64,000 nucleotides of DNA, taken from assembly GCF_025137375.1 (NCBI RefSeq), contig NZ_CP073720.1, forward strand, positions 5,046,501 through 5,110,500. Direction: 5' to 3'. The notes beneath the pieces were generated by a model that had not been told where the DNA came from, searched no databases, and saw only the letters and a program-made list of their open reading frames with translations. The DNA comes from Dactylosporangium fulvum (GTDB taxonomy: Bacteria; Actinomycetota; Actinomycetes; Mycobacteriales; Micromonosporaceae). Position 1 is the first letter of the stretch. Each line of letters opens with the position of its first letter. This document shows positions 41,676 to 62,524 of this stretch, one piece after another. The translations under genes were made by a program, and so were the position numbers.

Positions 41676-42820
41676 CCGCGGCGCTGGCCCTCACCGCCTG
41701 CACGGCCGACCCGCCGCCGCCCGCACCCGCACCCGCGCCGGCGTTCGAGCCTCCACAGTGGACTCGGGGACCGGCACTGACCGGACTGCCGTCGCCGGGC
41801 TCCGGGCTGGCGGCGTGGGACGGCGGGCTGCTGCTCGGCAACGGTGTCGTCGGCGTCCACGGGTACACCGAGGTCTTCGCCTCGGCCGACGGCCGGACAT
41901 GGCAGCCGTCGGCACCCGAGGCCTCGATCCGGCCCGCCTCGTGCTGCCTGCGCATGGTCGCCGGCCACGGCTCCGCCGCGTATCTCGTCGGCTGGGGCTC
42001 CCGCGGCCTGACGGTGTGGCGGACCGAGGACGGCCGGCAGTGGACGGCGGCCCAGCTGCCGCTCGGCGGCACCCGCGTCCGCGACCAGTTCGACCTGGAG
42101 GTGACGATCGCGGCCGGCCCGCGCGGGGTCGTCGTCGCCGGCATCAGCATGCTCAACCCGCCGCGCTTCCCCGGCGTGTACGTCTGGAGCTCGCCCGACG
42201 GCCGCTCCTTCGTCCCGCCGGTGCACGTCCGGTCCGGCCCCGGGACGACGACGCTTCCGGTCGTGGAGGTCACCGCCACCGGTTTCCTCCTGGCCGTGTC
42301 GGTCGACGGCCAGGGGACGACGGTGTACGAGTCGGCGGACGGCACCGGCTGGCGGGACATCACGGCCGGCCTGACCGGCGTCCCGGTCGTGGGTCACCTC
42401 GCCGGCAACGGCACGACGACGGTGCTGCTGCCGGACAAGGCGCGGCCGGGGGAGCCGCAGGCCTGGTACCGCCGGGGCGACGGCGGGTGGCAGGCGGGGA
42501 CGATGGATCCGGGCCGCCTGCCGGACGCCGGGGTGGTGCCCGCCGAGGAGCGCGAGGTCAACGCCGTCCACCGCTGGGGCAACGGCTTTCTCGCGGTGGG
42601 CAACACGTATGCCGACGAGGGCCGGGAACGGTCCGTCATGGTGTGGTACACAGTGGACGGTGCACTCTGGACCAGGATGCCGGTCCGTGCGAACGGCTTC
42701 GACTCGGCCGCGATCCTCGAGGACGTGGCGTCGAACCGGGAGCGGACCGTCCTGCTGGCGGTGCCGGCCGACTTCTCCGAGCAGCTGCTGACCTGGCAGG
42801 CCCCCGCCCCGCACAGCTAG
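41657..42820 (+). CDS. Secreted lipoprotein, beta-propeller-like
   Basis: About 387 residues. LLTAALALTACTADPPPPAP is a lipoprotein signal with lipobox LTA-C, followed by a Pro/Ala linker. The rest repeats a W-rich blade pattern with Asp-Gly turns (FASADGRTWQPSAPEA; VWRTEDGRQWTAAQLP; VWSSPDGRSFVPPVHV; VYESADGTGWRDITAG; VWYTVDGALWTRMPVR), as in sialidase/Asp-box propellers. No ATG, GTG or TTG lies near the signal sequence; CTG 41657 or 41651 is the only in-frame candidate, inside the end of the preceding gene. The start is therefore uncertain; translational coupling or a rare CTG start is possible. Confidence 0.65.
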   Translation: MEAVLLTAALALTACTADPPPPAPAPAPAFEPPQWTRGPALTGLPSPGSGLAAWDGGLLLGNGVVGVHGYTEVFASADGRTWQPSAPEASIRPASCCLRMVAGHGSAAYLVGWGSRGLTVWRTEDGRQWTAAQLPLGGTRVRDQFDLEVTIAAGPRGVVVAGISMLNPPRFPGVYVWSSPDGRSFVPPVHVRSGPGTTTLPVVEVTATGFLLAVSVDGQGTTVYESADGTGWRDITAGLTGVPVVGHLAGNGTTTVLLPDKARPGEPQAWYRRGDGGWQAGTMDPGRLPDAGVVPAEEREVNAVHRWGNGFLAVGNTYADEGRERSVMVWYTVDGALWTRMPVRANGFDSAAILEDVASNRERTVLLAVPADFSEQLLTWQAPAPHS

Positions 42821-44193
42821 GCACCGGCTCGGCGCCCTGCGGTCGGACCGTCGAGCAGTGCCCCGTCGACCAGGTGGCCGGCGGCGCCCGTGTAGCGGGA
42901 CGGGTCGCACAGGTCGTCGAGGTCCAGCGCCTTCGTCGCCGGTTCGTCCGCCAGCACCTCGGCGAGCGGCAGGCCCCGCCGGTCGGCCTCCGCCGCCGCC
43001 CGGGACAGCAACCGCCGGGCCTCCGGCTTGCCCAGCGCCGGGGTCAGCACCGCCGCCAGGCGTTCCGACACCACCTGGCCGCCGGTGCGGGCCAGGTTGT
43101 CGCGCATCCGGTCCGGGCGCGGCTCCAGGCCCTCCGCCAGGGCCGCCGCCGTGTGCGCGGCGCCGCCGGTCAACCGTAACGCCTCCCGCAGCAGCGGCCA
43201 CTCCGCGTGCCAGCCGCCCGCCGAGCGCTCGTCCTCGCCGAGCAGCGCCTGCGTCAGGCCCGTCGCCAGCACCGGCACCTGCAGGGCCGCGGACCGCACC
43301 AGCGTCGCGAGGACCGGGTTGCGCTTGTGCGGCATCGCCGAGGAGGCGCCGCCGGCCGGCTCCACGACCTCGCCGATCTCGGTCCGCGCCAGCGTCAGCA
43401 CGTCGACCGCGAACTTGCCCAGCGCGCCCGCGGTGAAGCCGAGCGCCGCGCCCAGGTCGGCGACCGGGGTGCGCAGCGCGTGCCAGGGGAGGGCCGGGCG
43501 GGCGAGGCCGGTCTCGTCGGCGAACGCGGCCGCCAGGTCGGCTGCGTACGACGCGGGCGCCCCGCCGTCGACACGCGCGTACTCGAGGTAGCCGGCGAGC
43601 GTCCCGGCGGCGCCGCCCAGCGAGACCGGCAGGCCGCCGTCGAGGAGCCGGGCCAGCCGCGTGTCGGCGTCCAGGACCAGCTGCCGCCAGCCGGCCGCCT
43701 TCAGCCCGAACGTCGTCGGCACCGCGTGCAGCGCCAGGGTCCGGCCGGCGACCGGGGTGTCGCGGTGCGCCGCCGCCAGCGCGGCCAGCGCACCCGCGGT
43801 GCGGGCCAGGTCGTCGCGGACCAGCCGCAGCACCCGCGCCGCGACCAGCATCGCGCCGGTGTCGAGGATGTCCTGGCTGGTGGAGCCGCGGTGCACGTAC
43901 TCGGCGGACGGCGGGTCGACCTCGGCCACCCGCGCGGTGAGCGCCGCGACCAGCCCGACGACCGGGTTCGCGGTCGCCCGGGCCGCGACCGCGAGCGCCC
44001 GCGTGTCGAACAGCTCGGCACGAGCCGTGCGCGTGATGACGGCGGCGGCCTGCGCCGGCAGGCGGCCCAGCCGGGCCTGGGCCCGGGCGAGCGCCGCCTC
44101 CGCGTCGAGCATCGCCTGGAGCCAGGCCCGGTCGCTGACGAGCGCCTCCACGGGCGTCCCGGCGCTGACGGGGCTCAGCAGGCCCGTACTCAC
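42817..44193 (-). CDS. creD: Nitrosuccinate lyase CreD-like (aspartase/fumarase superfamily)
   Basis: A 458-residue member of the fumarase/aspartase superfamily, closest in pattern to 3-carboxy-cis,cis-muconate cycloisomerase (PcaB). Motifs: YVHRGSTSQDILDTGAMLVA, the GGASSAMPHKRNPVLATLV signature loop with the catalytic Ser, and GGWHAEWPLLREALRL. No pca gene is nearby. Instead it follows a CreE-like flavoenzyme gene, its start overlapping that stop (GTGA). In the nitrous-acid pathway CreD/CreE pairs are encoded like this, and CreD cleaves nitrosuccinate to nitrite and fumarate. I infer that role from context; a muconate-type role is the alternative. Its stop overlaps the stop of the convergent lipoprotein gene. 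Confidence 0.75.
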   Translation of the reverse strand: MSTGLLSPVSAGTPVEALVSDRAWLQAMLDAEAALARAQARLGRLPAQAAAVITRTARAELFDTRALAVAARATANPVVGLVAALTARVAEVDPPSAEYVHRGSTSQDILDTGAMLVAARVLRLVRDDLARTAGALAALAAAHRDTPVAGRTLALHAVPTTFGLKAAGWRQLVLDADTRLARLLDGGLPVSLGGAAGTLAGYLEYARVDGGAPASYAADLAAAFADETGLARPALPWHALRTPVADLGAALGFTAGALGKFAVDVLTLARTEIGEVVEPAGGASSAMPHKRNPVLATLVRSAALQVPVLATGLTQALLGEDERSAGGWHAEWPLLREALRLTGGAAHTAAALAEGLEPRPDRMRDNLARTGGQVVSERLAAVLTPALGKPEARRLLSRAAAEADRRGLPLAEVLADEPATKALDLDDLCDPSRYTGAAGHLVDGALLDGPTAGRRAGA

Positions 44194-46112
44194 ACCACCA
44201 CCCCCGTGAACGAGGGAGCGGACCGCGGCACGGACGCCGGCGCCAGGTCCCGGACCGCGGCCGCGATCGCGTCGGCGTCGCCGAGGGTCACCGAGTCGAC
44301 GCCGGGCCGGATGCCGGCCGCAGTGACCCAGTGGACGGACTCGGTCGGCACGCCGTACGCGAACCGGCGCGGATGGGGCTGCCCCTGCCCGTCGACGACG
44401 TGGTACGGGCGCCGGGTGACCGCGAGGCCACCGGTCTCGTGGAAGCCGCCGCCGGCACACGGGATGCGGTACGGCCGGCACTGCTCGGTGTCGAGCATGT
44501 GCCGCAGCAGCGGATCCGCCGTCCGGCGCAGGTCGACGTCGTGCAGCCGCGCCTCGACGAGGGCCGCGGCCCGCACCGGCTCGTCCGGCACCGCCGCCGA
44601 CACGGCGACGAACGCCGGATCCTCGGTGTCCACGAGGATCTGGGTGCCGGGCCCGGTCAGCTCCACCACGCCGCTCTCGATGACGGCGGCGAGCTCCTCG
44701 ACCCGCGACGCGGGCGGGCCGATCGACAGGAACGCGTTGAACGGCGTGTACCAGGCGGTGAGCTCGTCGCGGTACGAGTCGCCGTCGAGCCCGCCGTGGT
44801 CGACCACGAGGCGGATCTCGTTGCGCAGGTCCCGCAGGACGTCCAGGGCGGCCTTGAGCGGCCCGCTGACGTTGCCGAGCCGGGCCTGCCCGACGTCGCG
44901 CGCCAGGTACTCCAGCGCCCAGGCGCGGAACTCGGCCCGCCCGGCGAAGCGGCGCCGCCCGGCCGGCCGGGCCAGCCGCTCCCAGTCCCAGCGGTCCGCC
45001 GCCGCGACGCCGTGCTCGTCGAGCAGGCCCGCCGGGTCGGCGAGGTATCGGGCGGTGAACGCCGCCCGGTCGCCGGGCTGCAGCAGCGTCGCGTAGTACA
45101 CGCTCTCCACCTCGGCGGCGACGAGCGGCCACAGGTCGCGGCCGAACCGCAGCGTGCCGTGCCGTTCCCGCAGCCGTGCGATCACCTCGGGCGTGAGGAC
45201 CCGCGGCGTGTGCCGGCCCGACGCGCCCTTCTCGTTCTCGCCCCGGGCGTGCGACGGCACCCCGCGCCGCGAACCGGCGAACAGGCGCGGCTCGCGGCCG
45301 CTCGGGACGTACCGCAGCCGACCGCCCTCCCGCTCGAAGCGCCCGCCGCGGCCGGCCGTCAGCAGGGCCAGGTAGTCGAAGAAGTTCAGCCCCAGCCCGC
45401 GGATCAGCACCGGCGCACCCGGTTCCAGGGCGTCGAGGTCGACGTCGGCGGGGTTGGCCTGGGTGAGGTACGTGAGCCGGTGGACCCGCGCGAGGCTCGC
45501 CGCACGGGCCTGCGCCGGCGGCAGCAGCGACGGCACGTGCCCCTGCGCCAGGACGACCGCGTCGAGGTGGTGCAGCCGGGTGCCGTCGGCGAGGCGCACG
45601 CCCTGCGGCCCGCCCGGCACGCCGCTGGTGTCGGCGATCGCCACCGCCCGCGACCGGTGCACCCGGACCGTCACGTGCGCCGGGGCGGCCGCGACGACAC
45701 CGGCGAAGCTGTCGGCGAGGTACCGGCCGTAGAGGGCCCGGCTCGGGTAGTCGTCGGGCCCGAGTCGCTGCGCCTCCGCCAGGGTTCTGTCGTCGGCGCC
45801 GCCGATCGGGCCGAGCAGCGCGAGCTGCCTCGCCCAGTCGTAGAGGCTCGGGCCCGGCTCGATCGGGCCGTCGATCCGCGCGGTGCGGTCGGTGTAGACG
45901 GTGATCTGCGCGGCGACCGTGTTGGTGAGCAGCAGCCGCGACTGGTCCGTGCGCCAGACCGCCCCCGCACCGGGCTCCGTCGCGTCGACGACGTGCACGG
46001 TCACGGCCGTGAACCGCGGCTCGTGCCGCTCCTGCGCGCACAGCCGCTCCAGCACCGACAGCCCGCGGGGCCCGGCGCCGATGATGCAGAGATGGAACCG
46101 TCCGTCGTTCAC
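44190..46112 (-). CDS. creE: CreE-like FAD-dependent aspartate N-monooxygenase
   Basis: A 640-residue FAD/NAD(P)-binding protein. The dinucleotide loop is CIIGAGPRGLSVLERLCAQE (G12-x-G-P-x-G), a second nucleotide region VLAQGHVPSLLPP and LIRGLGLNFFDYLALLTAGR, and a long C-terminal half with LPGTQILVDTEDPAF-like strands. Length and motifs fit the CreE/FzmM family that oxidises L-aspartate to nitrosuccinate. The overlap with the lyase gene downstream and with the FAD monooxygenase gene upstream (GTGA at both ends) indicates coupled expression. The enzymatic step is inferred from the family and context; general NAD_binding_9 proteins of other function exist. Confidence 0.75.
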   Translation of the reverse strand: MNDGRFHLCIIGAGPRGLSVLERLCAQERHEPRFTAVTVHVVDATEPGAGAVWRTDQSRLLLTNTVAAQITVYTDRTARIDGPIEPGPSLYDWARQLALLGPIGGADDRTLAEAQRLGPDDYPSRALYGRYLADSFAGVVAAAPAHVTVRVHRSRAVAIADTSGVPGGPQGVRLADGTRLHHLDAVVLAQGHVPSLLPPAQARAASLARVHRLTYLTQANPADVDLDALEPGAPVLIRGLGLNFFDYLALLTAGRGGRFEREGGRLRYVPSGREPRLFAGSRRGVPSHARGENEKGASGRHTPRVLTPEVIARLRERHGTLRFGRDLWPLVAAEVESVYYATLLQPGDRAAFTARYLADPAGLLDEHGVAAADRWDWERLARPAGRRRFAGRAEFRAWALEYLARDVGQARLGNVSGPLKAALDVLRDLRNEIRLVVDHGGLDGDSYRDELTAWYTPFNAFLSIGPPASRVEELAAVIESGVVELTGPGTQILVDTEDPAFVAVSAAVPDEPVRAAALVEARLHDVDLRRTADPLLRHMLDTEQCRPYRIPCAGGGFHETGGLAVTRRPYHVVDGQGQPHPRRFAYGVPTESVHWVTAAGIRPGVDSVTLGDADAIAAAVRDLAPASVPRSAPSFTGVVV

Positions 46113-47275
46113 CGCACCGCTCCGATCCGTTCCTCGTGCATCCACGCGACCTCGTCGTGCAACTGCTCGGCCGTCATCGCGGCGAGCAGCCGGTTGCGGG
46201 CCGCCGCCGCGTCGCCGGCCGGGTGCCACAGCCGGATGCTCTCCCGCGAGATGCGCTGGATCGCCGCCGTCCGGCCGCGCCGGCGGTCCCGGTACTCCGC
46301 GAGCCCTGCCGGGCCCCGCTCGACCAGCTCCGCCAGCAGTACCGCGTCCTCGAGCGCCTGGCAGGCACCCTGGGCCGCGTAGTGCAGCATCGGGTGGGCG
46401 GCGTCGCCGAGCAGCGTCACCCGGCCGTCGCACCACTCGTCGACCGGCTCGCGGTCCACGAGCACCCAGGCGCGCCAGTCGCGGCCGAGGTCGAGCAGGT
46501 GCCGGGCGGCCGGCAGCCGGCGGAACTCCCGGCGCACCCGCTCGGTCGTCGCCGGGATGCCGGCGAACGCCTCGGTCACGCCGTCGTCGCTGCTCGCCGC
46601 GAGGTTGAGGAACCGGCCGCCGCCGATCGGGTAGTGCACGAAGTGGCACTTCGGCCCGGCCCACCAGGTCACCGCGGCGGTCCGCAGCGGTGCCGGTACC
46701 TCTTCGATGGGGATGATCGAGCGGTACACCGTGATGCCGGAGACCCTGGGCTCGCCGTCGCCGACGAGCTGCTCGCGGATCGCGGAGCGGATGCCGTCGG
46801 CCCCGACGAGCACGGTGCCGGTGACCCGGGCGCCGGTCGCGAGGACCGCGGTGGCGCCGGTGGCGTCCTGCGCGTACCCGACGACGGGGCTGGCGGCGCG
46901 CAGCTCGACGCCGGGGGCGGCGCGGCAGGCGTCGAGCAGCAGGCCGTACAGGTGGCCGCGGTGCACGACGACGTAGGAACTGCCGAAGCGGCGCTGGTAC
47001 TGCCCGGTCAGCGGCATGCTCACCACGTGCGCGCCGGTGACGCCGTCCATGAACCGCAGCTCGTCCATCGGCGTGGCGATCGCCCGCACCGCCGTGCCGA
47101 GCCCCAGCCGGTCCAGTGCGTGGATGCCGTTCGGCGCCAGCTGGATCCCGGCGCCGAGCTCGGCGAACTCGGCGCTGCGCTCCAGCACGGTCGCGCGGTG
47201 GCCGCGGGCGGCGACGGCCAGCGCGAGCGCGAGCCCGCCGATCCCGCCACCCACGACGACGACGTGTTCGCTCAC
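46109..47275 (-). CDS. FAD-dependent aromatic monooxygenase
   Basis: A 388-residue class-A flavin monooxygenase of the salicylate/3-hydroxybenzoate hydroxylase type. It has VVVVGGGIGGLALALAVAAR (FAD loop), LVGADGIRSAIRE (DG motif, NADPH side) and RVTLLGDAAHPMLHYAAQGA (second FAD motif). It should hydroxylate an aromatic ring. In cremeomycin-type clusters such an enzyme modifies the aminobenzoate before or after diazotisation. It overlaps both neighbours by four bases (GTGA), and so is a fixed part of the operon. Confidence 0.88.
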   Translation of the reverse strand: MSEHVVVVGGGIGGLALALAVAARGHRATVLERSAEFAELGAGIQLAPNGIHALDRLGLGTAVRAIATPMDELRFMDGVTGAHVVSMPLTGQYQRRFGSSYVVVHRGHLYGLLLDACRAAPGVELRAASPVVGYAQDATGATAVLATGARVTGTVLVGADGIRSAIREQLVGDGEPRVSGITVYRSIIPIEEVPAPLRTAAVTWWAGPKCHFVHYPIGGGRFLNLAASSDDGVTEAFAGIPATTERVRREFRRLPAARHLLDLGRDWRAWVLVDREPVDEWCDGRVTLLGDAAHPMLHYAAQGACQALEDAVLLAELVERGPAGLAEYRDRRRGRTAAIQRISRESIRLWHPAGDAAAARNRLLAAMTAEQLHDEVAWMHEERIGAVR

Positions 47276-48813
47276 CGGTCCGCGCTCCCCAGCAGGCGGG
47301 CCAGCTCCAGACGCTTGATCTTGGTGGTGGCCGTCTGCGGCAGGTCGGCGAGGCGCCACTGCACCGGCTCCGCCATCGCCGGCAGCGCGGACACCGCGGA
47401 GCGCCACGCGGCCCGGTCCAGCGGCCGGTCGTCCTTCGTGCACACCACCGGGACCGGCGCGCCGTCGGTGCCGGGCACGATGATGACCTCGGCGAGCTCG
47501 TCGAGCCGGGCGAAGAGGTGGTCCTCGGCGGCGAGCGTGCTGCCGAAGCCGGGGATCTCGTCGACCTCGCGGTCGAGCAGGTGCAGGCAGCCCCAGCGGG
47601 TCCGGTAGCCCAGGTCGCCCATCCGCCACCAGGAGCCGTCGCGCTGGCCGTCGTAGCGTTGCTGCTCGCCGAGGTACGTCAGGACCCGCCCGTCGGTGCG
47701 CACCTCGATGAAGCCGGGCGACGACGCGGTCACCCGCCGGCCGTCGCGGCTCACCACCCGCACGTCGGTCATGCCGGGGAAGGGACGGCCGACGCACCGG
47801 CCGTCGGCGTCGAGCGCGCGCTGTCTGGTGAAGGCGCGTGCGACGACGGGGCCGACCTCGCTCTGGCCGTACAACTGCCCGAACACCGGGAACCGGTGAC
47901 CGGACGCACCCAGCATGCGGTGCACGGTCCGCGGGTGGATCGCGTCGAACGTGCTGCTGAAGTACTTCACGCTCGCCAGCGGCCGGCGCGGGTCGTCCGC
48001 GAGCTCCTCCCACCGCATGAACGTGTTCGGGTGCGCCTCCAGCACGCCGGGGCGCACCTCGGCGAACAGGTCCGCGACCAGGCGCGGGTCGTCGTCGGCG
48101 AGCACGACGAGCGGGAACCCGCGCAGCAGCGTGATCGAGAGCGCGGTGAACAGCCGCGAGTGCACGAACGACACGTGGATGGCGACCGGCCGCCGGCGGC
48201 GGACGAGCGCGGCGACCGACGCCTGCGGCCGGTGCCGCGCCTGCAGCGTCCGTCCGGTGTGGACGGCCAGCTTCGGCACGCCCGTCGTGCCGGACGTGTG
48301 GGTCACCAGCGTGGGGTGCTCCGGCGGTACCGTGACCGCCGGCTGCTCGGGGACCTCGGCGCGCTCGAACAGCCGCACCGCGTCGAGCACCCCGCCGGCG
48401 TGCGCGGCGATGTCGGACGGGAGGTCGTGGTCAAGCTTGGCCCGGTCGGTGAGCAGGAACGGCCGCTCCACCCGGCGCACCAGCTCGGCGACCGTGGCGC
48501 CGTCGAGCTTCGGGGAGAGCAGCACCGGTACCGCACCGATGCGCGCGATGGCGCAGGCGAGCAGGGTGATGTCGAAGCCGTTGGTCTTGTAGACCACCAC
48601 CCGGTCCCCGGTGCGCACACCCGCCGCCCACAGCCGTGACGCCGCGTCGGCGACGAGCCCGGCGATCTGTGCGACGGTCGTGCGCCGGCCGAGATGCGGC
48701 GCGATGGCGAGGTCGTGGTCGAGGACCACGACGTTGTCGGGGTGGCGGTGCGCGGCCCGCTCGAACAGCGTGCCGAGCCGGATGCCGCGGTTGCCGATGC
48801 GCTGCAGGAACAT
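47272..48813 (-). CDS. creM: AMP-dependent ligase, CreM-like diazotase candidate
   Basis: A 513-residue ANL-superfamily ligase. P-loop motif VTHTSGTTGVPKLAVHTG, then FGQLYGQSEVGPV (A5) and MGDLGYRTRWGCLHLLDREV (A7/A8), with TTKIKR as the late catalytic Lys. No CoA- or carrier-specific partner is encoded nearby. In cremeomycin and avenalumic acid pathways an enzyme of this type (CreM, AvaA6) uses ATP and nitrite to diazotise an aromatic amine; its position in a CreD/CreE operon makes that role likely here. A plain acyl-CoA or aryl-acid ligase remains possible. GGAGG lies before ATG 48813. Confidence 0.75.
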   Translation of the reverse strand: MFLQRIGNRGIRLGTLFERAAHRHPDNVVVLDHDLAIAPHLGRRTTVAQIAGLVADAASRLWAAGVRTGDRVVVYKTNGFDITLLACAIARIGAVPVLLSPKLDGATVAELVRRVERPFLLTDRAKLDHDLPSDIAAHAGGVLDAVRLFERAEVPEQPAVTVPPEHPTLVTHTSGTTGVPKLAVHTGRTLQARHRPQASVAALVRRRRPVAIHVSFVHSRLFTALSITLLRGFPLVVLADDDPRLVADLFAEVRPGVLEAHPNTFMRWEELADDPRRPLASVKYFSSTFDAIHPRTVHRMLGASGHRFPVFGQLYGQSEVGPVVARAFTRQRALDADGRCVGRPFPGMTDVRVVSRDGRRVTASSPGFIEVRTDGRVLTYLGEQQRYDGQRDGSWWRMGDLGYRTRWGCLHLLDREVDEIPGFGSTLAAEDHLFARLDELAEVIIVPGTDGAPVPVVCTKDDRPLDRAAWRSAVSALPAMAEPVQWRLADLPQTATTKIKRLELARLLGSADR

Positions 48814-48823
48814 GCGTCCTCCG

Positions 48824-49363
48824 TCACGCCTTCTCGATGACCACTTTGACCCGTTGCAGGGTGTCCGCCAGGTCCGACTGGACCTTGGTACCCCACTCGG
48901 CGAAGAACCGTGTGCGCTCCGCCTCGTCCATGTCCGCGGTGATCTTGCGGATGCCCTCGGTGGGCCGCCCCATGCGGAAGTGGTGGACGAGCGTCGACCC
49001 GTCCCCGTCCGGCTCGACCTCGAACGACCACACGCTGTCCTGCGTGCGACCGGCGCTGTCCCGCATCGCCCAGCGGAAGGCCTTGCCCGGCTCGGCGGCG
49101 ACGACCTCGGCCTCGGTCGTCCAGGTGCCCCGTACGACGGGCGCCCAGGCGACGACGTCCTCGCCGCGCAGGTTCTCGCCCTGGAAGACGGCACCGACAC
49201 TGCCCGGCGTGCCGGCGATCCAGCGGCCGCCGGTGCACTCGGTGCTCCATTCGCCGCTGCGCGGCAGATCACTGACGACGGCGTAGATTTCTTCGGGCCG
49301 CGCGGCGACGTGGAGATCGGCGCGGGCCTGGAAAAGCGGTGGACCGCTCAGAGTTTCGGCCAT
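48824..49363 (-). CDS. SRPBCC (START-like) protein, cyclase/aromatase family
   Basis: A 179-residue SRPBCC-fold protein: FQARADLHVAARPEEIYAVV, DLPRSGEWSTECTGG, and the late VHHFRMGRPTEG strand. Such proteins bind hydrophobic or aromatic ligands; some are polyketide cyclases. It is first in the operon, with the ligase gene 10 bases downstream. There is no Shine-Dalgarno sequence before ATG 49363; a promoter-like TTGACC and CAACAT end six bases upstream, so the message is probably leaderless. Confidence 0.85.
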   Translation of the reverse strand: MAETLSGPPLFQARADLHVAARPEEIYAVVSDLPRSGEWSTECTGGRWIAGTPGSVGAVFQGENLRGEDVVAWAPVVRGTWTTEAEVVAAEPGKAFRWAMRDSAGRTQDSVWSFEVEPDGDGSTLVHHFRMGRPTEGIRKITADMDEAERTRFFAEWGTKVQSDLADTLQRVKVVIEKA

Positions 49364-49507: not shown

Positions 49508-50365
49508 CTACGGGAGGAAGTCCGCCGCGTGGTCGTGGGCCCACTCGGCGAACGTCCGTGCCGGGCGGCCGGTCACGCGTTCGACCACGTCCGTCACCTC
49601 ATACGGCACGCCGTCCGTCGCCGCCCAGTAGCCTATCGTCGCCTCGATCACCCACTCCGGCACGATCCGGGCCAGCTCGGCCCGGCCCTGATCCGGGGTC
49701 AGTTCCGCCACGCGGACCGGGCGGCCCGTCGCCTCGGCGATCAGCTCCGCCTGCCGGCGCTGGGTCACCGACTCCGGGCCGGTGATGAGGTACCGCGCGC
49801 CCTCGTGGCCCGGAGTCGTCAACGCCGCGGCGGCCACGGCGGCGATGTCGCGCTCGTGGATCGCGTCGCTGTGCGACTCCGGATACGGGAACCGGACCAC
49901 GCCCTCGGCCCGGATCGACCTGTCCCAGCCCCACAACAGCACGTTGCTCGCGAAGTTGTCCGGCCGCAGATACGTCGTCGCCAGACCTGAGGCGTCCAGC
50001 GCCTGCTCGACGACGCGGTGCATGTCGGCGATCGCCTTGCGGGCCGGGATCCGGTCCAGCACGGTGTCGGACGACAGCAGCACCACGTGCTCGACCCCGG
50101 CGGACCGGGCCGCCGCGACGAACGCGTCGACGCCCTGCGGCACCGCGTAGAGGAACACCTTGCGGACGCCCGCCAGGGCGGCCGGCAGGCTCTCGGGGAC
50201 GGTCAGGTCGGCGCGGACGGTCTCGACGGCGGCGGGCAGCTCGAGGCGGCCCGGGTCGCGGCCGGTCGCCCGGACCCGGACACCGGCGGCGAGCAGCTCG
50301 TCGACGACGGCGCGGCCGACCTGGCCGCCGCCGCCGAAGACGAGGACGGGATCGGTGACGGTCAT
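49508..50365 (-). CDS. NmrA-type NAD(P)-binding reductase
   Basis: A 285-residue atypical short-chain dehydrogenase. VLVFGGGGQVGRAVVDELLA is the dinucleotide loop, VRADLTVPESLPAAL and VFLYAVPQGVDAFV follow, and YLRPDNFASNVLLWG with ITGPESVTQRRQAEL fits the NmrA/quinone-oxidoreductase-2 group. It may reduce a quinone or imine, or act in a dediazotisation-like step known from related pathways (inference). AGGAGG precedes ATG 50365, which overlaps the stop of the acyltransferase gene (ATGA). It is last in its operon, before a strong terminator. Confidence 0.88.
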   Translation of the reverse strand: MTVTDPVLVFGGGGQVGRAVVDELLAAGVRVRATGRDPGRLELPAAVETVRADLTVPESLPAALAGVRKVFLYAVPQGVDAFVAAARSAGVEHVVLLSSDTVLDRIPARKAIADMHRVVEQALDASGLATTYLRPDNFASNVLLWGWDRSIRAEGVVRFPYPESHSDAIHERDIAAVAAAALTTPGHEGARYLITGPESVTQRRQAELIAEATGRPVRVAELTPDQGRAELARIVPEWVIEATIGYWAATDGVPYEVTDVVERVTGRPARTFAEWAHDHAADFLP

Positions 50366-51528
50366 CTGCTGGGACCTCCTGAGTGCTCGACGGTGAGAGC
50401 GGGCTGCCGCTGCTGCGGCACGACCGCGGCGCGGCGGGCGGTGGAGAAGCGGCGGGTGATCGGCCGCTCCACGGCGGTGTAGAGCAGCGCGGCCAGCGCG
50501 ATCGACACGGCGAGCTCGGCGGCGAGCAGCGCGATCGCGGCCGGGGTGCCGAACGTGCGGCCGAGCAGCGACCGCCCGGCGGCCAGGACGATGAAGTGCA
50601 GCAGGTAGAAGGCGAAGGAGATCTCGCCGAGCCAGCGGGCGGCCCGGCCGCGGAACGGCGTGAACCGGCCCTGCGCGTCGGCGGTCGCCGCCGCGGCGAT
50701 GAGCAGCACGATCGGCACGATGGTGACGGCGCGTTGCCCGTACAGGTACGGCACGAACGACGCCAGCGGCACGGCGACCGCCAGCAGGAGGGCGGACCAG
50801 CCGAGCCCGACGTCCCGCCACCGTCCACTGAGGACGGCGCGGGCGACCAGGATGCCCAGCGCGAAGTCGAGCAGCCGCACGGGCGGCAGGAAGTACGCGA
50901 ACCAGTACTGCGACTCGGACGCCTCCCACCCGCCGGGGACGCCCGGGGTCGACGGGAACACCAGGTAGGCCACGAGCGGGGTGGCGACGACCCCGGCGAC
51001 GGTGCCGGCGATCCAGTACTTCAGCCGGTCCTCGCGGATCCGGTTGGCGAGCACCAGCAGCAGCGGGAACGCCGCGTAGAAGATCGCCTCCGTGCCCAGC
51101 GACCAGCTCGGCGGGTTGACGCTGATGTTGACGAAGAAGTCGGGCACCCAGACCTGCAGCATGAACAGGTTGAGCACGGCCTGCCACGCCGGCGTGTACG
51201 CGGCCGCGAACACCACCATGGCGAGGATCCACGCGACCACGTAGTTCGGGTAGATCTTCACCAGCCGGCGGCGCCAGAACGCCCTGGGCGTGTCGTGCTC
51301 ACGCGCCGACCAGGTCAGCACGAAGCCGCTGAGCACGAAGAAGAACGTGACGCCGAGCGCGCCGAGCTGGGCCCCCGCCGTGGCGAAGCCGCCCGCGAGG
51401 CCCTGGTCGGCGAAGAGGCTGGTGCTCGGCAACTGCAGCGACGCGTGGTACACGAAGACGAGCAGGGCCGCTGGGAACCGTAAGCCCGTCAGCGAGGGCA
51501 GCCGGGAGGGCCGGTCGGGGGTGGTCAT
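50362..51528 (-). CDS. Acyltransferase 3 family membrane protein
   Basis: A 388-residue integral membrane acyltransferase (OafA/YrhL type) with about ten hydrophobic segments. The conserved N-terminus is LTGLRFPAALLVFVYHASLQ with the catalytic His, then FFFVLSGFVLTWSARE and RRRLVKIYPNYVVAW (RxxxxYP-like). It O-acylates a sugar or small molecule at the membrane. In this operon it may modify the pathway product. ATG 51528 is three bases after the upstream stop. Confidence 0.92.
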   Translation of the reverse strand: MTTPDRPSRLPSLTGLRFPAALLVFVYHASLQLPSTSLFADQGLAGGFATAGAQLGALGVTFFFVLSGFVLTWSAREHDTPRAFWRRRLVKIYPNYVVAWILAMVVFAAAYTPAWQAVLNLFMLQVWVPDFFVNISVNPPSWSLGTEAIFYAAFPLLLVLANRIREDRLKYWIAGTVAGVVATPLVAYLVFPSTPGVPGGWEASESQYWFAYFLPPVRLLDFALGILVARAVLSGRWRDVGLGWSALLLAVAVPLASFVPYLYGQRAVTIVPIVLLIAAAATADAQGRFTPFRGRAARWLGEISFAFYLLHFIVLAAGRSLLGRTFGTPAAIALLAAELAVSIALAALLYTAVERPITRRFSTARRAAVVPQQRQPALTVEHSGGPSR

Positions 51529-55688: not shown

Positions 55689-57590
55689 GTGGTTCCGCGC
55701 TTCGCGCCGGTGCAGGACGACACCCGGGCGGACGCCCACCGGGGGCTCGCCGCCCTCGTGGACGCCGCGCACGATCTCACCGTGCCCAGCGACCTGGAAA
55801 GCCTCTTACCCGTCGTCGCGCGGCAGGCGCGCCGGCTGCTCGGCCTCTCCCTCGCGTTTGTCGGCGTGCTCGACGACGAGCAGGGCACGGTCACCGTCCG
55901 CGCCGTCGACGGCCTCGCGTCCGGCCTCGCACCCGGGTTCCGGCTGCCGCGCGACGAGGGTCTCGCCGGCGCCGCGCTCACCGGCGCGGGCCCGCAGTGG
56001 ACGGCCGACGCGACGGGCGCGCTCGACCGGACCGACCGGCCTCCGCAGGCCGGGCGGGCGTGGCCGGCGGACGTGAACGGCGCGGACGCGGGAACCGCGC
56101 CGGGGTGGGCCGCCGCCGGGGAACACGGCGACCCGTTCGCCGCGCTGGTGCGGGCCGAGGCACTGCGCGCGGTGATCGCCGTCCGGCTCGGCCACGGCAC
56201 GGGACGCTTCGGCAAGCGGCCGTTCGGCGTGCTCTGCGCCGCCGACCGGCGGGCGCGCCCGTTCACCGCCGACGAGTGCGCGCTGCTCGGCTCCCTCGCC
56301 GAGCTGGCGGGTGCCGTGATCGAGAAGGCGCGGCTGCTCGACCGTACCGCAGCCCGGCTGTCCGGGCTGGAGAACACCACCGCCCGCACCGCCGCCGACC
56401 TCGGGCGGGTCCGGGAGCTCGGCGCCGTGCACCGGGCGCTCGTCGACCTCGCCGTGTCCGGCGGCGACCCGCAGGAGCTCGTCGACGAGGCCGGCCGGCG
56501 GCTGCGCGGCGGGGTCCGCCTGTACGACGCGGACGGTCGGACCCTCGCGACGAGTTGCGAGGGCCCGGCCTGGCCGGACGACGGGCCGGCCGATCCGCCG
56601 GTGAACGGCACGGCGGGCCGTGAACCGGTGGCGCTCGACCCGACGACCTGGCGGGTGCCGGTCGTCGCCGGGGACCGGCCGCTCGGCACGCTCCTGGTGC
56701 GCACCGGGCGCAGCCTCACCGGCGTCGAGCGGCAGGTGCTGCCGCTGGTCGCGCAGGCCGCCGCCGTCGTGCTGCGCCACCACGCGGGCAGCGCCGCCGA
56801 GGAGCACGCCCGCGAGGACCTGCTCGACGACCTGCTCGTCACGCCACCGCGCCCGCGCCGGCGGCTCGACCGGGCGGCCCGGCGGCTCGGCGTGGACCTC
56901 GACCGGCCGTACGTGGTGCTCGTGGCCCGGCCGGAGGACGCCGCGCGCGACCCGGGAGCGCAGCGCCGGCCCGGCCGTGCCGCGATCTGGGCCGCCTCGC
57001 ACGCGCGGCGCACCGGCGGCCTCAGCGGCACCCGCGACGGCCACCTCGTGCTGGTGCTGCCCGGCACCGACCCCGGCGCGGCGGCCCGCACGGTCACCGA
57101 CGAGCTGTCGGCGCTGCTCGGCACGCCGGTCACGATCGGCGCCGCCGGACCGGCCTCCGGCGCGGCGGCCCTCGCGGCCGGGCACCGGGAGGCGCTGCGC
57201 TGCATCGACGCCCTCACTGCGCTCGACCTCACCGGCCGCGGCGCGTCCGGGCGGGAGCTGGGTTTCCTCGGTGTCCTGATGTCCGGCCGGCAGGGCGTCG
57301 ACACGTTCGTGGACGCGGTCCTCGGCCCGGTCCTCGACCACGACCGGCGCCGGTTCACCGACCTCACCCGCACGCTCGACGCCTACTTCGAGGCCGGCGG
57401 CAGCCCGACCAACGCCGCGGAGCGGCTGCACGTGCACCCCAACACCGTCGCGCGCCGGTTGGAGCGGGTGAAGGAGCTGCTCGGGCCGGACTGGCAGCGG
57501 CCGGTGAAGGCACTGGACGTACAACTGGCGCTGCGGCTCTTCCGGTTGCGCGACACGCTGTCCGGCGAGCCGCGCGGCCAGCGCCGGTGA
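55689..57590 (+). CDS. PucR-family regulator with GAF domain
   Basis: A 633-residue regulator. A GAF domain spans about residues 30-210 (VARQARRLLGLSLAFVGVLD; DEGLAGAALTGAGPQWTADA; PFGVLCAADRRARPFTADEC); a central nucleotide-binding-like segment follows, and the C-terminal PucR helix-turn-helix is TLDAYFEAGGSPTNAAERLH with VHPNTVARRLERVKELLG. It senses a small molecule and controls catabolic or secondary genes. GGAGG lies five bases before GTG 55689, which decides the start over GTG 55683. It is divergent from the XRE gene and convergent with the oxidoreductase gene. Confidence 0.9.
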   Translation: MVPRFAPVQDDTRADAHRGLAALVDAAHDLTVPSDLESLLPVVARQARRLLGLSLAFVGVLDDEQGTVTVRAVDGLASGLAPGFRLPRDEGLAGAALTGAGPQWTADATGALDRTDRPPQAGRAWPADVNGADAGTAPGWAAAGEHGDPFAALVRAEALRAVIAVRLGHGTGRFGKRPFGVLCAADRRARPFTADECALLGSLAELAGAVIEKARLLDRTAARLSGLENTTARTAADLGRVRELGAVHRALVDLAVSGGDPQELVDEAGRRLRGGVRLYDADGRTLATSCEGPAWPDDGPADPPVNGTAGREPVALDPTTWRVPVVAGDRPLGTLLVRTGRSLTGVERQVLPLVAQAAAVVLRHHAGSAAEEHAREDLLDDLLVTPPRPRRRLDRAARRLGVDLDRPYVVLVARPEDAARDPGAQRRPGRAAIWAASHARRTGGLSGTRDGHLVLVLPGTDPGAAARTVTDELSALLGTPVTIGAAGPASGAAALAAGHREALRCIDALTALDLTGRGASGRELGFLGVLMSGRQGVDTFVDAVLGPVLDHDRRRFTDLTRTLDAYFEAGGSPTNAAERLHVHPNTVARRLERVKELLGPDWQRPVKALDVQLALRLFRLRDTLSGEPRGQRR

Positions 57591-57597
57591 CGGGCGC

Positions 57598-58575
57598 TCA
57601 GGACGGCCTGAGCACCACGCGGCGGCCGTGCAGCTCGCCCCGCTCGATCATGCGGTGGGCCTCCGCGGTCGCCGACAGCGGCAGGTCCACCGTCGCCCGC
57701 GGGCGCAGCCGCCCGGCCGCGAGCAGCCGGTTGATCGTCACCGCGGCCTCGGCCAGCTCACTCGCCGTGGCGTGGGAGATGACAAAACCGGTGACGGTGC
57801 GGTCGTGCATGTAGAGCGCACCGGCCGGCAGCACCGGACGGGTCGCGGCGCCGGCGACGAGGACGACCCGCCCCCGGAACGCCAGCAGCTCCACCACGGT
57901 CTCCAGGTCGTTGCGCCCGGACGTGTCGAGGTAGAGGTCGATGCCGTCCGGGCAGGCCCCGGCGAGCCGGTCGGTCAGGTCCGGCGCGCGGTAGTCGAGG
58001 ACCTCGGCCGCGCCCAGGTCCGCGCAGTACGCGGCGTCGGCCGCCGCGGCGGTCGCCACCACCCGCGCGCCGGCCTCCACGGCCAGCGCCACCAGCGCCG
58101 TGCCCACGTTGCCGGCGGCGCCCTCGACGACCACCGTCTCGCCGGCCCGCAGCCGCCCGTGGGTGAACAGCCCGAGGTAGGCGGTGCCGGCCGGGTGCAC
58201 CGCCGTCACCGCGGTCTCCGGCGGCACCCCGGCCGGCAGGCGGTACAGCCGCTCGACCGGCACCACGGCCTGCTCGGCGGCGGCGCCCTGCCGGCCCGCG
58301 TGGCCCAGGCTGTTGCACCAGACGAGGTCACCCGGGGCGAACCCGGCCGCGCCGGCGCCGGCCCGGGCCACCGTGCCGACCAGGTCGCGGCCGACGACAA
58401 ACGGCATCGGCAGCGGGGTGCGGAACAGCCCCGAGCGGACGAACGTGTCGACCGGGTTCACCGTCGTGGCGATCACGTCGACGAGGACGTCGGTCGGGCC
58501 CGGGACGGGGGCGGGCAGCTCGCCGTGCCGGATGACCTCCGGCGGCCCGAGCCGTTCGATGTAGGCGGCGCGCAT
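57598..58575 (-). CDS. Zinc-type alcohol dehydrogenase-like / quinone oxidoreductase
   Basis: A 325-residue medium-chain reductase of the NADPH:quinone reductase type without zinc ligands. VLVDVIATTVNPVDTFVRSG and VVVEGAAGNVGTALVALAVE (AAGxVG NADPH motif), and VVLVAGAATRPVLPAGALY, are characteristic. It reduces quinones or enones. It ends seven bases after the convergent PucR stop and is divergent from the second MDR gene; the 178 bases between hold both promoters. Confidence 0.9.
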   Translation of the reverse strand: MRAAYIERLGPPEVIRHGELPAPVPGPTDVLVDVIATTVNPVDTFVRSGLFRTPLPMPFVVGRDLVGTVARAGAGAAGFAPGDLVWCNSLGHAGRQGAAAEQAVVPVERLYRLPAGVPPETAVTAVHPAGTAYLGLFTHGRLRAGETVVVEGAAGNVGTALVALAVEAGARVVATAAAADAAYCADLGAAEVLDYRAPDLTDRLAGACPDGIDLYLDTSGRNDLETVVELLAFRGRVVLVAGAATRPVLPAGALYMHDRTVTGFVISHATASELAEAAVTINRLLAAGRLRPRATVDLPLSATAEAHRMIERGELHGRRVVLRPS

Positions 58576-60336: not shown

Positions 60337-61080
60337 ATGGCGGTCCGGCTCAACCACACGTTCGTGCACACCCGGGACGCCTGGCGGTCCGCCCGCGACC
60401 TGGCCGACACGCTCGGGCTGCCCGAGCCGGGCTGGTCCGGGCCGTTCCCCGCGGTGCGGCTCGACGGCGGCGTCCTGCTGGAGTTCGTCCAGGTCGAGGG
60501 CGAGGTGACCACACAGCACTACGCCTTTGAGGTCACCGCCGCCGAGTTCGACACGATCCTCGGCCGCATCCGCGGCGCGGGCCGGCCCTACTGGGCCGGT
60601 CCGCTGCACCACGGGCCGGGCGTGGTCAACTCCTGGGGCGGCGGGCGCGGCTTCTACTTCGACAGCGTCGACGGCCACGCTTTCGAGGTGCTGACCCGCC
60701 CCGCCGGCGGCGCCGACAGCCCGGCGCACCTCGTCGAGCTCGTCGCCCGCGCGTACAACGACGGCGACGCGGAGGCCGCGCTGCGGCTGTTCGAGCCGGT
60801 CGCGGTGCTCGTCACGCGGCCCGGCGAACCGGTCACCGGGGCTCGGCTGCGCCAGTCGATCACGGCCTTCCTCGGCCAGGTCCGGCAGATGGAGATCCGG
60901 ATCCGGCACGTCTACGAGGCCGACGGGATCGCGCTGCTCGTCACCGACCACGACACCGAGCTCACGGGGCCGGACGGCGACCCGGTCCGGGTCGCCGGCA
61001 CGGCCACCGACGTCGCCCGCCGCGGCCCGGACGGCCGGTGGCGATACCTGCTCGACAACCCTTCCGGTACAGCTCCCTGA
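60337..61080 (+). CDS. VOC domain - SnoaL-like fusion protein
   Basis: A 247-residue protein with two small domains. Residues 1-125 are a glyoxalase/VOC module (RLNHTFVHTRDAWRSARDLA; LEFVQVEGEVTTQHYAFEV; GRGFYFDSVDGHAFEVLTRP), and residues 130-245 a SnoaL/DUF4440-like alpha+beta cone (LVELVARAYNDGDAEAALRL; RIRHVYEADGIALLVTDHDT). The pairing of both folds in one chain is uncommon. It starts two bases after the hemerythrin stop, so it is coupled to it. Confidence 0.85.
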   Translation: MAVRLNHTFVHTRDAWRSARDLADTLGLPEPGWSGPFPAVRLDGGVLLEFVQVEGEVTTQHYAFEVTAAEFDTILGRIRGAGRPYWAGPLHHGPGVVNSWGGGRGFYFDSVDGHAFEVLTRPAGGADSPAHLVELVARAYNDGDAEAALRLFEPVAVLVTRPGEPVTGARLRQSITAFLGQVRQMEIRIRHVYEADGIALLVTDHDTELTGPDGDPVRVAGTATDVARRGPDGRWRYLLDNPSGTAP

Positions 61081-61090
61081 AAGGTCCACG

Positions 61091-62524
61091 ATGGACGCCA
61101 CACCGCCGCGGCGCGCCGGCCTCGTGCTCGCCCTGCTCGGCCTCGCCCAGCTCATCACCTCGATCGACTACAACATCGTCTACGTCGCGCTGCCGGAGAT
61201 CGGCGCCGATCTCGGCTTCTCCGCGCAGAACCTCCAGTGGGTGGTGAGCGCCTACGCGGTCGCGTTCGGCGGCTTCCTGCTGCTCGGCGGGCGCGCCGCC
61301 GACCTCGTCGGCCGGCGCCGCGTCTTCGTCGCCGGGCTCGCGCTCTACGCCGTGTCGTCGCTCGTCGGCGGCCTGGCCGGTCATCCGGGCCTGCTCGTCG
61401 CCGCCCGTGCCGTGCAGGGCCTCGGCGGCGCGCTGCTGTTCCCGGCGACGCTGTCGCTCGTGGCCACCTCGTTCGAGGAGGGTCGCGACCGCAACCGGGC
61501 GTTCTCGGTGTGGGCCGCGGCCGGGGCCGGCGGCATGGTCCTCGGCTCGCTGCTCGGCGGCGTGCTCACCCAGGCGTTCGGCTGGGAGGCCGTGTTCTTC
61601 GTCAACGTCCCGCTCGCGGGCGTCGCGATCCTGCTCGCATACGTGCTGCTGCCCGCCGACGGCCCGCGCGTCACCGGTCGCGGCTTCGACCTGCCGGGCG
61701 CGGCCACCGCCACCGTCGGGGTGACCCTCGTGGTGTTCACGCTGGTGCAGGGCCCGGCCCTCGGCTGGACGTCGCCGCTGCTGCTGGCGACCGCCGCCGG
61801 TGGTCTCGTGCTGCTGGCCGGGTTCGTCGCGATCGAGGCCCGCACCGCCGCGCCGCTCATGCCGCTGCGGCTGTTCCGCAACCGCAACCTCAGCACCGGC
61901 GTGAGCGTGACGCTGCTGTTCATGGCGACGTTCGGGACGCTGCTGTACTTCCTGACGGTCCACTTCCAGCAGGTGCTGGGCTACAGCGCGCTGCAGACCG
62001 GGCTGGCGTACGTGGTGCCGATGTGCGCCGGTGCCGTCGGCTCGATGCTCGGCGGGCGGCTCGCGACCCGGTTCGGCAACCGGGCGACGCTGGTCACCAG
62101 CCTCGCCGTCGGCGCCGTGTCGACCGTCGGGCTGGGGCTCGGGATCGGCGCCGGTGGGTCGTACCTCGCGCTGCTGCCCGCCATGGTCGTGCTGAACGTC
62201 GCCCAGGGCGTCATCTTCACCACGATGTTCGCCGCCGCCACCACCGGCACCGCCCTGTTCGACCAGGGCATCGCGTCCGGCATCGTCTCGACCGGGCAGC
62301 AGGTGGGCTCGGCGGTGGGCCTGGCGGCGCTGGTCGCCGTCGCCAACGCCGGCACGGCCGGGCTGACCGGCCCGGACCTGCGCGACGCGACCGTCTCCGG
62401 CCTGCGCGACGCGGTGCTGGTGGCGGCGGCCGGCATGCTGGTGACGATCCTGGTGGCGCTGAACCTCCGCCGCCACCGGGCCCCGGCCGAGGAGCCGACC
62501 GAGCCGGCGCTGGCGTCGAACTGA
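61091..62524 (+). CDS. MFS drug exporter, DHA2 (EmrB/QacA) family
   Basis: A 477-residue transporter with 14 predicted helices. Motifs: DYNIVYVALPEIGADLGFSA (motif D1), GGRAADLVGRRRVFVAGLAL (motif A) and GGMVLGSLLGGVLTQAFGWE (motif C, antiporter class). It should export a hydrophobic drug or metabolite by proton antiport. It ends the operon and may be the exit route for a product of this region, though a link to the creD/E/M-like operon is only inferred. Confidence 0.95.
   Translation: MDATPPRRAGLVLALLGLAQLITSIDYNIVYVALPEIGADLGFSAQNLQWVVSAYAVAFGGFLLLGGRAADLVGRRRVFVAGLALYAVSSLVGGLAGHPGLLVAARAVQGLGGALLFPATLSLVATSFEEGRDRNRAFSVWAAAGAGGMVLGSLLGGVLTQAFGWEAVFFVNVPLAGVAILLAYVLLPADGPRVTGRGFDLPGAATATVGVTLVVFTLVQGPALGWTSPLLLATAAGGLVLLAGFVAIEARTAAPLMPLRLFRNRNLSTGVSVTLLFMATFGTLLYFLTVHFQQVLGYSALQTGLAYVVPMCAGAVGSMLGGRLATRFGNRATLVTSLAVGAVSTVGLGLGIGAGGSYLALLPAMVVLNVAQGVIFTTMFAAATTGTALFDQGIASGIVSTGQQVGSAVGLAALVAVANAGTAGLTGPDLRDATVSGLRDAVLVAAAGMLVTILVALNLRRHRAPAEEPTEPALASN

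What the first reader, a model, noticed from the sequence alone, without database searches (positions are those of the whole stretch)
42817..49363. Compact operon with the gene set of a nitrous-acid (aspartate-nitrosuccinate) diazotisation pathway
Five co-directional genes, four linked by GTGA overlaps, encode a CMLE-like lyase, a 640-residue GAGPRG flavoenzyme, a class-A FAD monooxygenase, an ANL ligase and an SRPBCC protein. The lyase has no pca neighbours. CreD/CreE make nitrite from aspartate in cremeomycin biosynthesis, and CreM-type ligases use it to diazotise an aromatic amine. No aminohydroxybenzoate synthase (GriI/GriH type) and no O-methyltransferase is present, so the amine would come from elsewhere and the product may be a new diazo, azo or dediazotised compound.
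Basis: partly seen in the sequence, partly recalled or inferred. Interest (0 to 1): 0.88.

Follow-up and report, generated by a model that had tools for sequence, protein, structure and literature searches.

The report
Nitrite-making diazotisation operon, 3-hydroxyanthranilate cluster
Five linked genes very probably make nitrite from aspartate and use it to put a nitrogen-nitrogen bond on an aromatic amine, most likely one derived from 3-hydroxyanthranilate, whose genes start about 8 kb beyond the window; the whole cluster recurs in Streptomyces-family genomes, but no product is on record for it beyond one partly similar cluster.

Summary
The lyase passes NCBI's nitrosuccinate-lyase cut-off (727 vs 650 bits), is 70% identical to CreD, keeps all 17 CreD residues checked, and groups in a tree with lyases that sit beside an aspartate N-hydroxylase, away from the PcaB-like group. 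The 640-aa flavoenzyme is 59% identical to the solved aspartate N-hydroxylase and keeps its aspartate-binding Arg/Asn cluster. The ligase is not of the AvaA6/Tri17 type: it lies in a separate clade almost always next to an SRPBCC gene (39 of 41 loci) and usually beside both nitrite genes (30 of 41), the same linkage as Pzm18-Pzm19 of the penzonemycin cluster. Just past the window's right end (8-12 kb) lies a complete 3-hydroxyanthranilate gene set, so the amine source is in the same cluster. All 21 conserved families of this cluster recur together in two Streptomycetaceae genomes and 16-20 of them in four more. Best reading: a penzonemycin-related cluster that diazotises a 3-hydroxyanthranilate derivative, with a distinct tailoring set (class-A monooxygenase, carboxylate-reductase-like pair, KASIII, arylamine acetyltransferase). 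Nitrite formation is near certain by homology; the diazotisation substrate and product are inferred. New variant of a known kind.

The parts
42817..44193 (-). nitrosuccinate lyase (CreD type)
   Evidence: NF052556 726.7 bits, cut-off 650; CreD 5xny E 4e-165; 17 of 17 key residues; tree
44190..46112 (-). L-aspartate N-hydroxylase (CreE/FzmM type), makes nitrosuccinate
   Evidence: 8cp2 643 bits; 10 of 12 named residues kept, only the two tunnel-mouth Arg lost
46109..47275 (-). class-A FAD monooxygenase related to 3-hydroxybenzoate 6-hydroxylase
   Evidence: 405.6 bits to NF006021, below its 459 cut-off; 36% identical to 4bjy
47272..48813 (-). ANL ligase, predicted nitrite-dependent diazotase of the SRPBCC-linked (Pzm18-like) clade
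   Evidence: AMP-binding; tree and linkage; motifs intact
48824..49363 (-). SRPBCC (Polyketide_cyc2) protein, conserved partner of the ligase
49508..50365 (-). NmrA-like reductase, paired with the next gene in 6-7 related clusters
50362..51528 (-). acyltransferase-3 family membrane acyltransferase
55689..57590 (+). PucR/GAF regulator conserved in related clusters
57598..58575 (-). zinc-type quinone oxidoreductase, conserved in 30 of 40 related loci (Pzm13 is annotated as quinone reductase)
60337..61080 (+). fusion of a VOC protein and a SnoaL-like protein that are separate genes in related clusters
61091..62524 (+). MFS exporter conserved in related clusters

Best explanation
The operon is the nitrite-making and diazotising module of a biosynthetic cluster built on 3-hydroxyanthranilate (3-HAA). 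Step 1: the 640-aa flavoenzyme oxidises L-aspartate to nitrosuccinate. Step 2: the lyase splits it into fumarate and nitrite. Step 3: the ligase activates nitrite with ATP and nitrosates an aromatic amine to a diazonium or quinone diazide. The amine is a 3-HAA-derived o-aminophenol; its genes (DAHP synthase, PhzE-type synthase, isochorismatase, DhbA-type dehydrogenase) lie 8-12 kb beyond the right end of the window. The class-A monooxygenase hydroxylates the ring, and the SRPBCC protein binds or steers the reactive intermediate. Shown by homology and residue checks: steps 1-2 and the 3-HAA supply. Inferred: step 3, its exact substrate, the SRPBCC and monooxygenase roles, and whether the N-N bond stays in the product.
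For: Lyase over the nitrosuccinate-lyase cut-off, 70% to CreD, all key residues, tree. Flavoenzyme 59% to aspartate N-hydroxylase 8cp2 with its substrate-binding residues. Ligase clade tied to SRPBCC (39/41) and to both nitrite genes (30/41). Complete 3-HAA set in the same cluster: PhzE-type synthase 634 bits to 3r74, dehydrogenase over the DhbA cut-off, isochorismatase, class-II DAHP synthase. 3-HAA genes also near this cassette in other genomes: any of the four within 10.5 kb in 17 of 41 loci, within the fetched region in about half of 40. The described pzm cluster joins the same nitrite genes, ligase, SRPBCC and 3-HAA genes and gives phenylhydrazones.
Against: In penzonemycin the N-N bond is on C4, not on the 3-HAA nitrogen, and no aminotransferase is found here, so the amine that is diazotised is uncertain. 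Some related loci (G694, G673, G681, G605, G616) showed no 3-HAA genes in the DNA fetched.
Confidence: 0.7

Rival explanations
1. Diazotisation-dependent deamination: the ligase diazotises the amine and the diazo group is then replaced by hydrogen, as AvaA7 does, so nitrogen is removed and no N-N bond remains. The monooxygenase, related to 3-hydroxybenzoate 6-hydroxylase, would then act on the deaminated ring; the NmrA-like protein is a candidate reductase.
For: Precedent in avenalumic and p-coumaric acid pathways. The monooxygenase relative acts on 3-hydroxybenzoate. An NmrA-like reductase is encoded directly upstream and is conserved.
Against: The NmrA protein scores 18 of 400 bits to the AvaA7 model and is missing from most related loci (7 of 40). 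An arylamine N-acetyltransferase and, in relatives, a GNAT suggest that an amine is kept. The monooxygenase carries His for the Q301 of the 3-hydroxybenzoate enzyme in 36 of 37 relatives.
Confidence: 0.17
2. The ligase-SRPBCC pair uses nitrite to nitrosate a ring carbon; the nitroso group is reduced to an amine by the FMN or quinone reductase and may be diazotised in a second round. This would supply the C4 nitrogen that penzonemycin needs.
For: No aminotransferase in this cluster and an 'unknown enzyme' is invoked for it in pzm. Conserved FMN reductase and quinone reductase. Several clusters hold two ligases of this family.
Against: No known member of the ligase family does this in the sources read; most clusters, this one included, have one ligase only. 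The amine of 3-HAA itself is a simpler target.
Confidence: 0.1
3. The ligase is an ordinary aryl-CoA or acyl-adenylate ligase for the 3-HAA carboxylate, and nitrite is used by another enzyme or non-enzymatically.
For: It is an ANL enzyme only 29% identical to Tri17 and scores better to a general acyl-CoA ligase model (122 bits) than to AvaA6 (96 bits). Some relatives at 39-43% identity have no nitrite genes nearby.
Against: The clade is tied to the nitrite genes (30 of 41 loci), and Pzm18, with the same SRPBCC linkage, is reported as 48% identical to the diazotase CreM. No Pfam AMP-binding C-terminal domain was detected, unlike the CoA ligase L133_7.
Confidence: 0.1
4. The lyase is a PcaB (carboxymuconate cycloisomerase) and the flavoenzyme an unrelated protein.
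For: The protein also exceeds the TIGR02426 pcaB cut-off (367 vs 356 bits), as a close superfamily member may.
Against: Twice that score to the nitrosuccinate-lyase model, CreD-group placement, adjacent aspartate N-hydroxylase, no pca neighbours.
Confidence: 0.01

Closest known systems
Penzonemycin (pzm) cluster, Streptomyces sp. SCSIO 40020 (PMC9323291)
   Same: CreD and CreE homologues, ligase beside SRPBCC, quinone reductase, VOC protein, MFS, transposase-like gene, and the four 3-HAA genes
   Different: pzm lists no class-A monooxygenase, carboxylate-reductase-like pair, KASIII, arylamine N-acetyltransferase, NmrA or acyltransferase-3; the window cluster showed no acetolactate synthase or second acyl-CoA ligase like Pzm16/17
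Cremeomycin cluster (CreD, CreE, CreM)
   Same: CreD-type lyase (70% identity) and CreE-type hydroxylase; ANL ligase presumed to diazotise
   Different: amine there is 3,4-AHBA made by CreH/CreI; here the cluster holds a chorismate-derived 3-HAA set and no O-methyltransferase was found
Avenalumic/p-coumaric acid clusters (AvaA6/CmaA6) and Tri17
   Same: nitrite from the same two enzymes and an ATP-dependent ANL enzyme
   Different: window ligase is in another clade, 96 of 975 bits to the AvaA6 model and 29% to Tri17
Type III PKS/prenyltransferase clusters resembling furaquinocin-type clusters (L128-L130, L204, L206)
   Same: ligase about 51-54% identical; L206 also holds the nitrite genes
   Different: they carry a DegT aminotransferase, cupin and type III PKS and no SRPBCC partner; the furaquinocin label is from memory, not tested

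Membership tests
Aspartate-nitrosuccinate (ANS) pathway | nitrosuccinate lyase equivalog with CreD active site | tested here: met
Aspartate-nitrosuccinate (ANS) pathway | aspartate N-hydroxylase with substrate-binding Arg/Asn cluster | tested here: met
Aspartate-nitrosuccinate (ANS) pathway | nitrite released from aspartate by the pair | not testable with these tools
   needs an enzyme assay
Pzm18/CreM-type diazotase | functional adenylation motifs | tested here: met
Pzm18/CreM-type diazotase | groups with CreM or Pzm18 in a tree | tested here: inconclusive
   neither sequence was available; same SRPBCC and 3-HAA linkage as Pzm18
Pzm18/CreM-type diazotase | nitrite- and ATP-dependent diazotisation | not testable with these tools
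   needs an enzyme assay
AvaA6/Tri17-type diazotase | AvaA6 equivalog score or same clade as Tri17 | tested here: not met
   96 of 975 bits; separate clade
3-HAA-based (pzm-like) cluster | DAHP synthase, PhzE-type synthase, isochorismatase and dehydrogenase in the same cluster | tested here: met
   beyond the window's right end
3-HAA-based (pzm-like) cluster | pzm side-chain genes (acetolactate synthase Pzm16, acyl-CoA ligase Pzm17) | tested here: not met
   none among the genes annotated
Cremeomycin/3,4-AHBA-type cluster | GriH/CreH-type DHQS-II synthase in the cluster | tested here: not met
   only PF01959 gene is 1.5 Mb away
PcaB / protocatechuate cluster | groups with PcaB and has pca neighbours | tested here: not met
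3-hydroxybenzoate 6-hydroxylase | equivalog cut-off 459 bits | tested here: not met
   405.6 bits; His213 and Tyr217 kept, Q301 is His

The most novel reading that the evidence does not exclude
The ligase-SRPBCC pair is a new kind of nitrite-using system that nitrosates the ring, or couples or cyclises the diazonium, of a 3-hydroxyanthranilate derivative, so that a new ring nitrogen or both nitrogens of an N-N unit come from aspartate-derived nitrite; the conserved cluster would make an undescribed class of quinone-diazide or other N-N compounds.
Probability: 0.15. Interest if true: 0.85.

Novelty: new variant of a known kind. Interest (0 to 1): 0.56.

Why it matters
Diazo and other N-N natural products are rare, reactive and of medical interest. 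This cluster gives a nitrite pathway a defined amine supply (3-hydroxyanthranilate) and an unexplored ligase clade tied to a small SRPBCC protein of unknown role. Because the gene set recurs in many genomes and the open literature searched holds only the partly similar penzonemycins, it is a concrete target: the nitrite step, the diazotase and the role of the SRPBCC partner can be tested with a handful of purified proteins.

Tried and rejected
PcaB reading of the lyase: rejected. AvaA6/Tri17 membership of the ligase: rejected. 3,4-AHBA as the amine: no synthase in the cluster. NmrA as an AvaA7 orthologue: 18 of 400 bits. Looking for the S. cremeus cluster, and so CreM, through CreD in 393 genomes: best hit 73%, not S. 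cremeus. SRPBCC structure: model of mean pLDDT 69, only generic helix-grip matches. LLM1, LLM2, the 2OG oxygenase, the MmyB-type regulator, the second quinone reductase and the hemerythrin protein have no counterpart in 40 related loci and are left out of the core. The name penzonemycin was not adopted for the product because the pzm side-chain genes are missing.

Full report
Observation. The five genes are present at the stated coordinates on the minus strand, in transcription order SRPBCC (48824-49363), ANL ligase (47272-48813), class-A flavin monooxygenase (46109-47275), 640-aa flavoenzyme (44190-46112), lyase (42817-44193). The last four are joined by three 4-base overlaps; SRPBCC and ligase are 10 bases apart; the gap to the next upstream gene (NmrA) is 144 bases.

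Nitrite genes. The lyase scores 726.7 bits against NCBI's nitrosuccinate lyase model (cut-off 650) and 367-374 bits against pcaB models. CreD (PDB 5xny) is by far its best solved relative, E 6e-165 against 5e-76 for the next, a carboxymuconate cycloisomerase. Identity to CreD is 70%, and all 17 positions taken from the 2026 mutagenesis paper (PMC13411527), including the fingerprint E49/H118/D125/H253/R341 and the SS loop, are conserved. In a tree of 57 lyases the window protein lies among lyases whose loci hold an aspartate N-hydroxylase, while the lyases without one form, apart from two outliers, a separate group. The flavoenzyme matches one protein in the whole PDB at E up to 1, the aspartate N-hydroxylase of Streptomyces sp. 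V2 (8cp2, 643 bits; PMC10404684). It keeps Arg13, Trp51, Asn62, Arg266, Arg276, Arg409, Arg412, Asn413, Arg416 and Arg577; only Arg593 and Arg597, which bind a second aspartate at the tunnel mouth, differ. Aspartate to nitrite is therefore close to certain by homology, though not assayed.

Ligase. It has intact adenylation motifs and the C-terminal lysine but scores only 96 of 975 bits against the AvaA6 diazotase model and is 29% identical to Tri17. Homologues were gathered from about 690 genomes. In a quick tree of 74 ligases the AvaA6/Tri17-like ligases of nitrite clusters form one clade. The window ligase lies in another, in which an SRPBCC gene is within 10.5 kb in 39 of 41 loci and both nitrite genes in 30 of 41. 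Its sister clade holds ligases from clusters with type III PKS, DegT aminotransferase, cupin, aromatic prenyltransferase and O-methyltransferase genes, and second ligases of clusters that also carry a ligase of the window's clade. The penzonemycin paper reports Pzm18, which sits beside SRPBCC Pzm19, as 48% identical to CreM. CreM itself could not be obtained.

Conserved cluster and amine source. The window genome (10.49 Mb, one contig; window = 5046501-5110500) has a PhzE-like gene at 5120958-5122736 and an isochorismatase at 5120329-5120928. Reading the flanking sequence shows, in window coordinates, an FMN reductase 71257-71871, class-II DAHP synthase 71864-73036, dehydrogenase 73047-73817 (346.7 bits, above the 300-bit DhbA cut-off), isochorismatase 73826-74449 and PhzE-type synthase 74449-76239 (634 bits to PDB 3r74). 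This is the chorismate route to 3-hydroxyanthranilate cited for calcimycin, limazepine and pzm. Between them and the operon lie an ALDH-like/AMP-binding pair (65638-68114; sizes and weak domain matches suggest a GriC/GriD- or LuxC/LuxE-like carboxylate reductase, an inference), an arylamine N-acetyltransferase (68130-68921), a KASIII (68921-69937), a DDE_5 gene, an MFS exporter, a quinone reductase, a PucR regulator and a VOC-SnoaL fusion. Counterparts occur together in related clusters: of 21 conserved families, G546 and G508 hold all 21, G744 20, G650 and G608 19, G244 16. In these genomes the five-gene cassette keeps its order. The only DHQS-II (3,4-AHBA-type) gene of the window genome is 1.5 Mb away.

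Mechanism. Aspartate is oxidised to nitrosuccinate, split to nitrite and fumarate, and nitrite is activated by the ligase to nitrosate an o-aminophenol derived from 3-HAA. The first two steps and the 3-HAA supply are shown by homology; diazotisation by this clade is inferred from linkage and from the pzm proposal. [quoted passage not shown] The SRPBCC protein is a helix-grip fold of unknown role.

What is not settled. In penzonemycins the N-N bond is on C4 and the 3-HAA nitrogen is acylated, and the authors invoke an unknown transaminase. No aminotransferase turned up in the window cluster either. Either this cluster diazotises the 3-HAA nitrogen itself, or a second nitrogen is installed in a way not yet known. 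Deamination and C-nitrosation stay open and are given as rivals.

Comparison and novelty. The nitrite pair is an ordinary member of a known kind. The cluster as a whole is nearest to pzm but differs in its tailoring genes and lacks the pzm side-chain genes. A full-text search for SRPBCC with diazo and gene cluster returned only the pzm paper, and searches for nitrite clusters with 3-HAA genes returned pzm plus reviews and other pathways; subscription journals are not covered. Hence: new variant of a known kind, of solid but not extreme interest.

Noticed in passing
window 51532-54450 (-): Two luciferase-like monooxygenases (NtaA/DmoA family) and a 2OG-Fe oxygenase lie in line upstream of the operon with overlaps, but have no counterpart in 40 related loci; the two luciferase-like genes recur near 33-37% aspartate N-hydroxylase homologues in other genomes (L242, L243, L246).
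   Followed up: partly
window 60337-61080 (+): One ORF fuses a VOC protein (residues 1-122) and a SnoaL-like protein (from about 128), which are two separate genes in the related Streptomycetaceae clusters.
   Followed up: yes
L221:5956-7050, beyond the window's right end: A DDE_5 'transposase' gene is conserved (43-51% identity) in 13 of 40 related clusters, often next to the PucR regulator, and pzm10 is also a transposase; it may be a stable cluster member.
   Followed up: partly
G000:C1:6602888-6610331 (L224, L225): A second PhzE-type/isochorismatase locus with a DHQS-II gene and a class-A monooxygenase homologue lies 1.5 Mb away: another aminobenzoate-type cluster.
   Followed up: no
L186, L189, L194, L196; L126/L127, L193, L198, L202, L002: Several related clusters hold two ligases of this family, either two of the SRPBCC-linked clade or one of it plus one of the sister clade, which hints at two nitrite-dependent steps.
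   Followed up: partly
L131-L137: Ligases 49-52% identical to the window's sit in clusters with a fused anthranilate synthase, a class-IV aminotransferase-fold protein, a class-A monooxygenase and a second AMP ligase, with no nitrite genes in the fetched DNA.
   Followed up: no
window 42817-44193, 50362-51528, 55689-57590: Rare TTA leucine codons occur in the lyase, the acyltransferase and the PucR regulator, which hints at bldA-type control.
   Followed up: no
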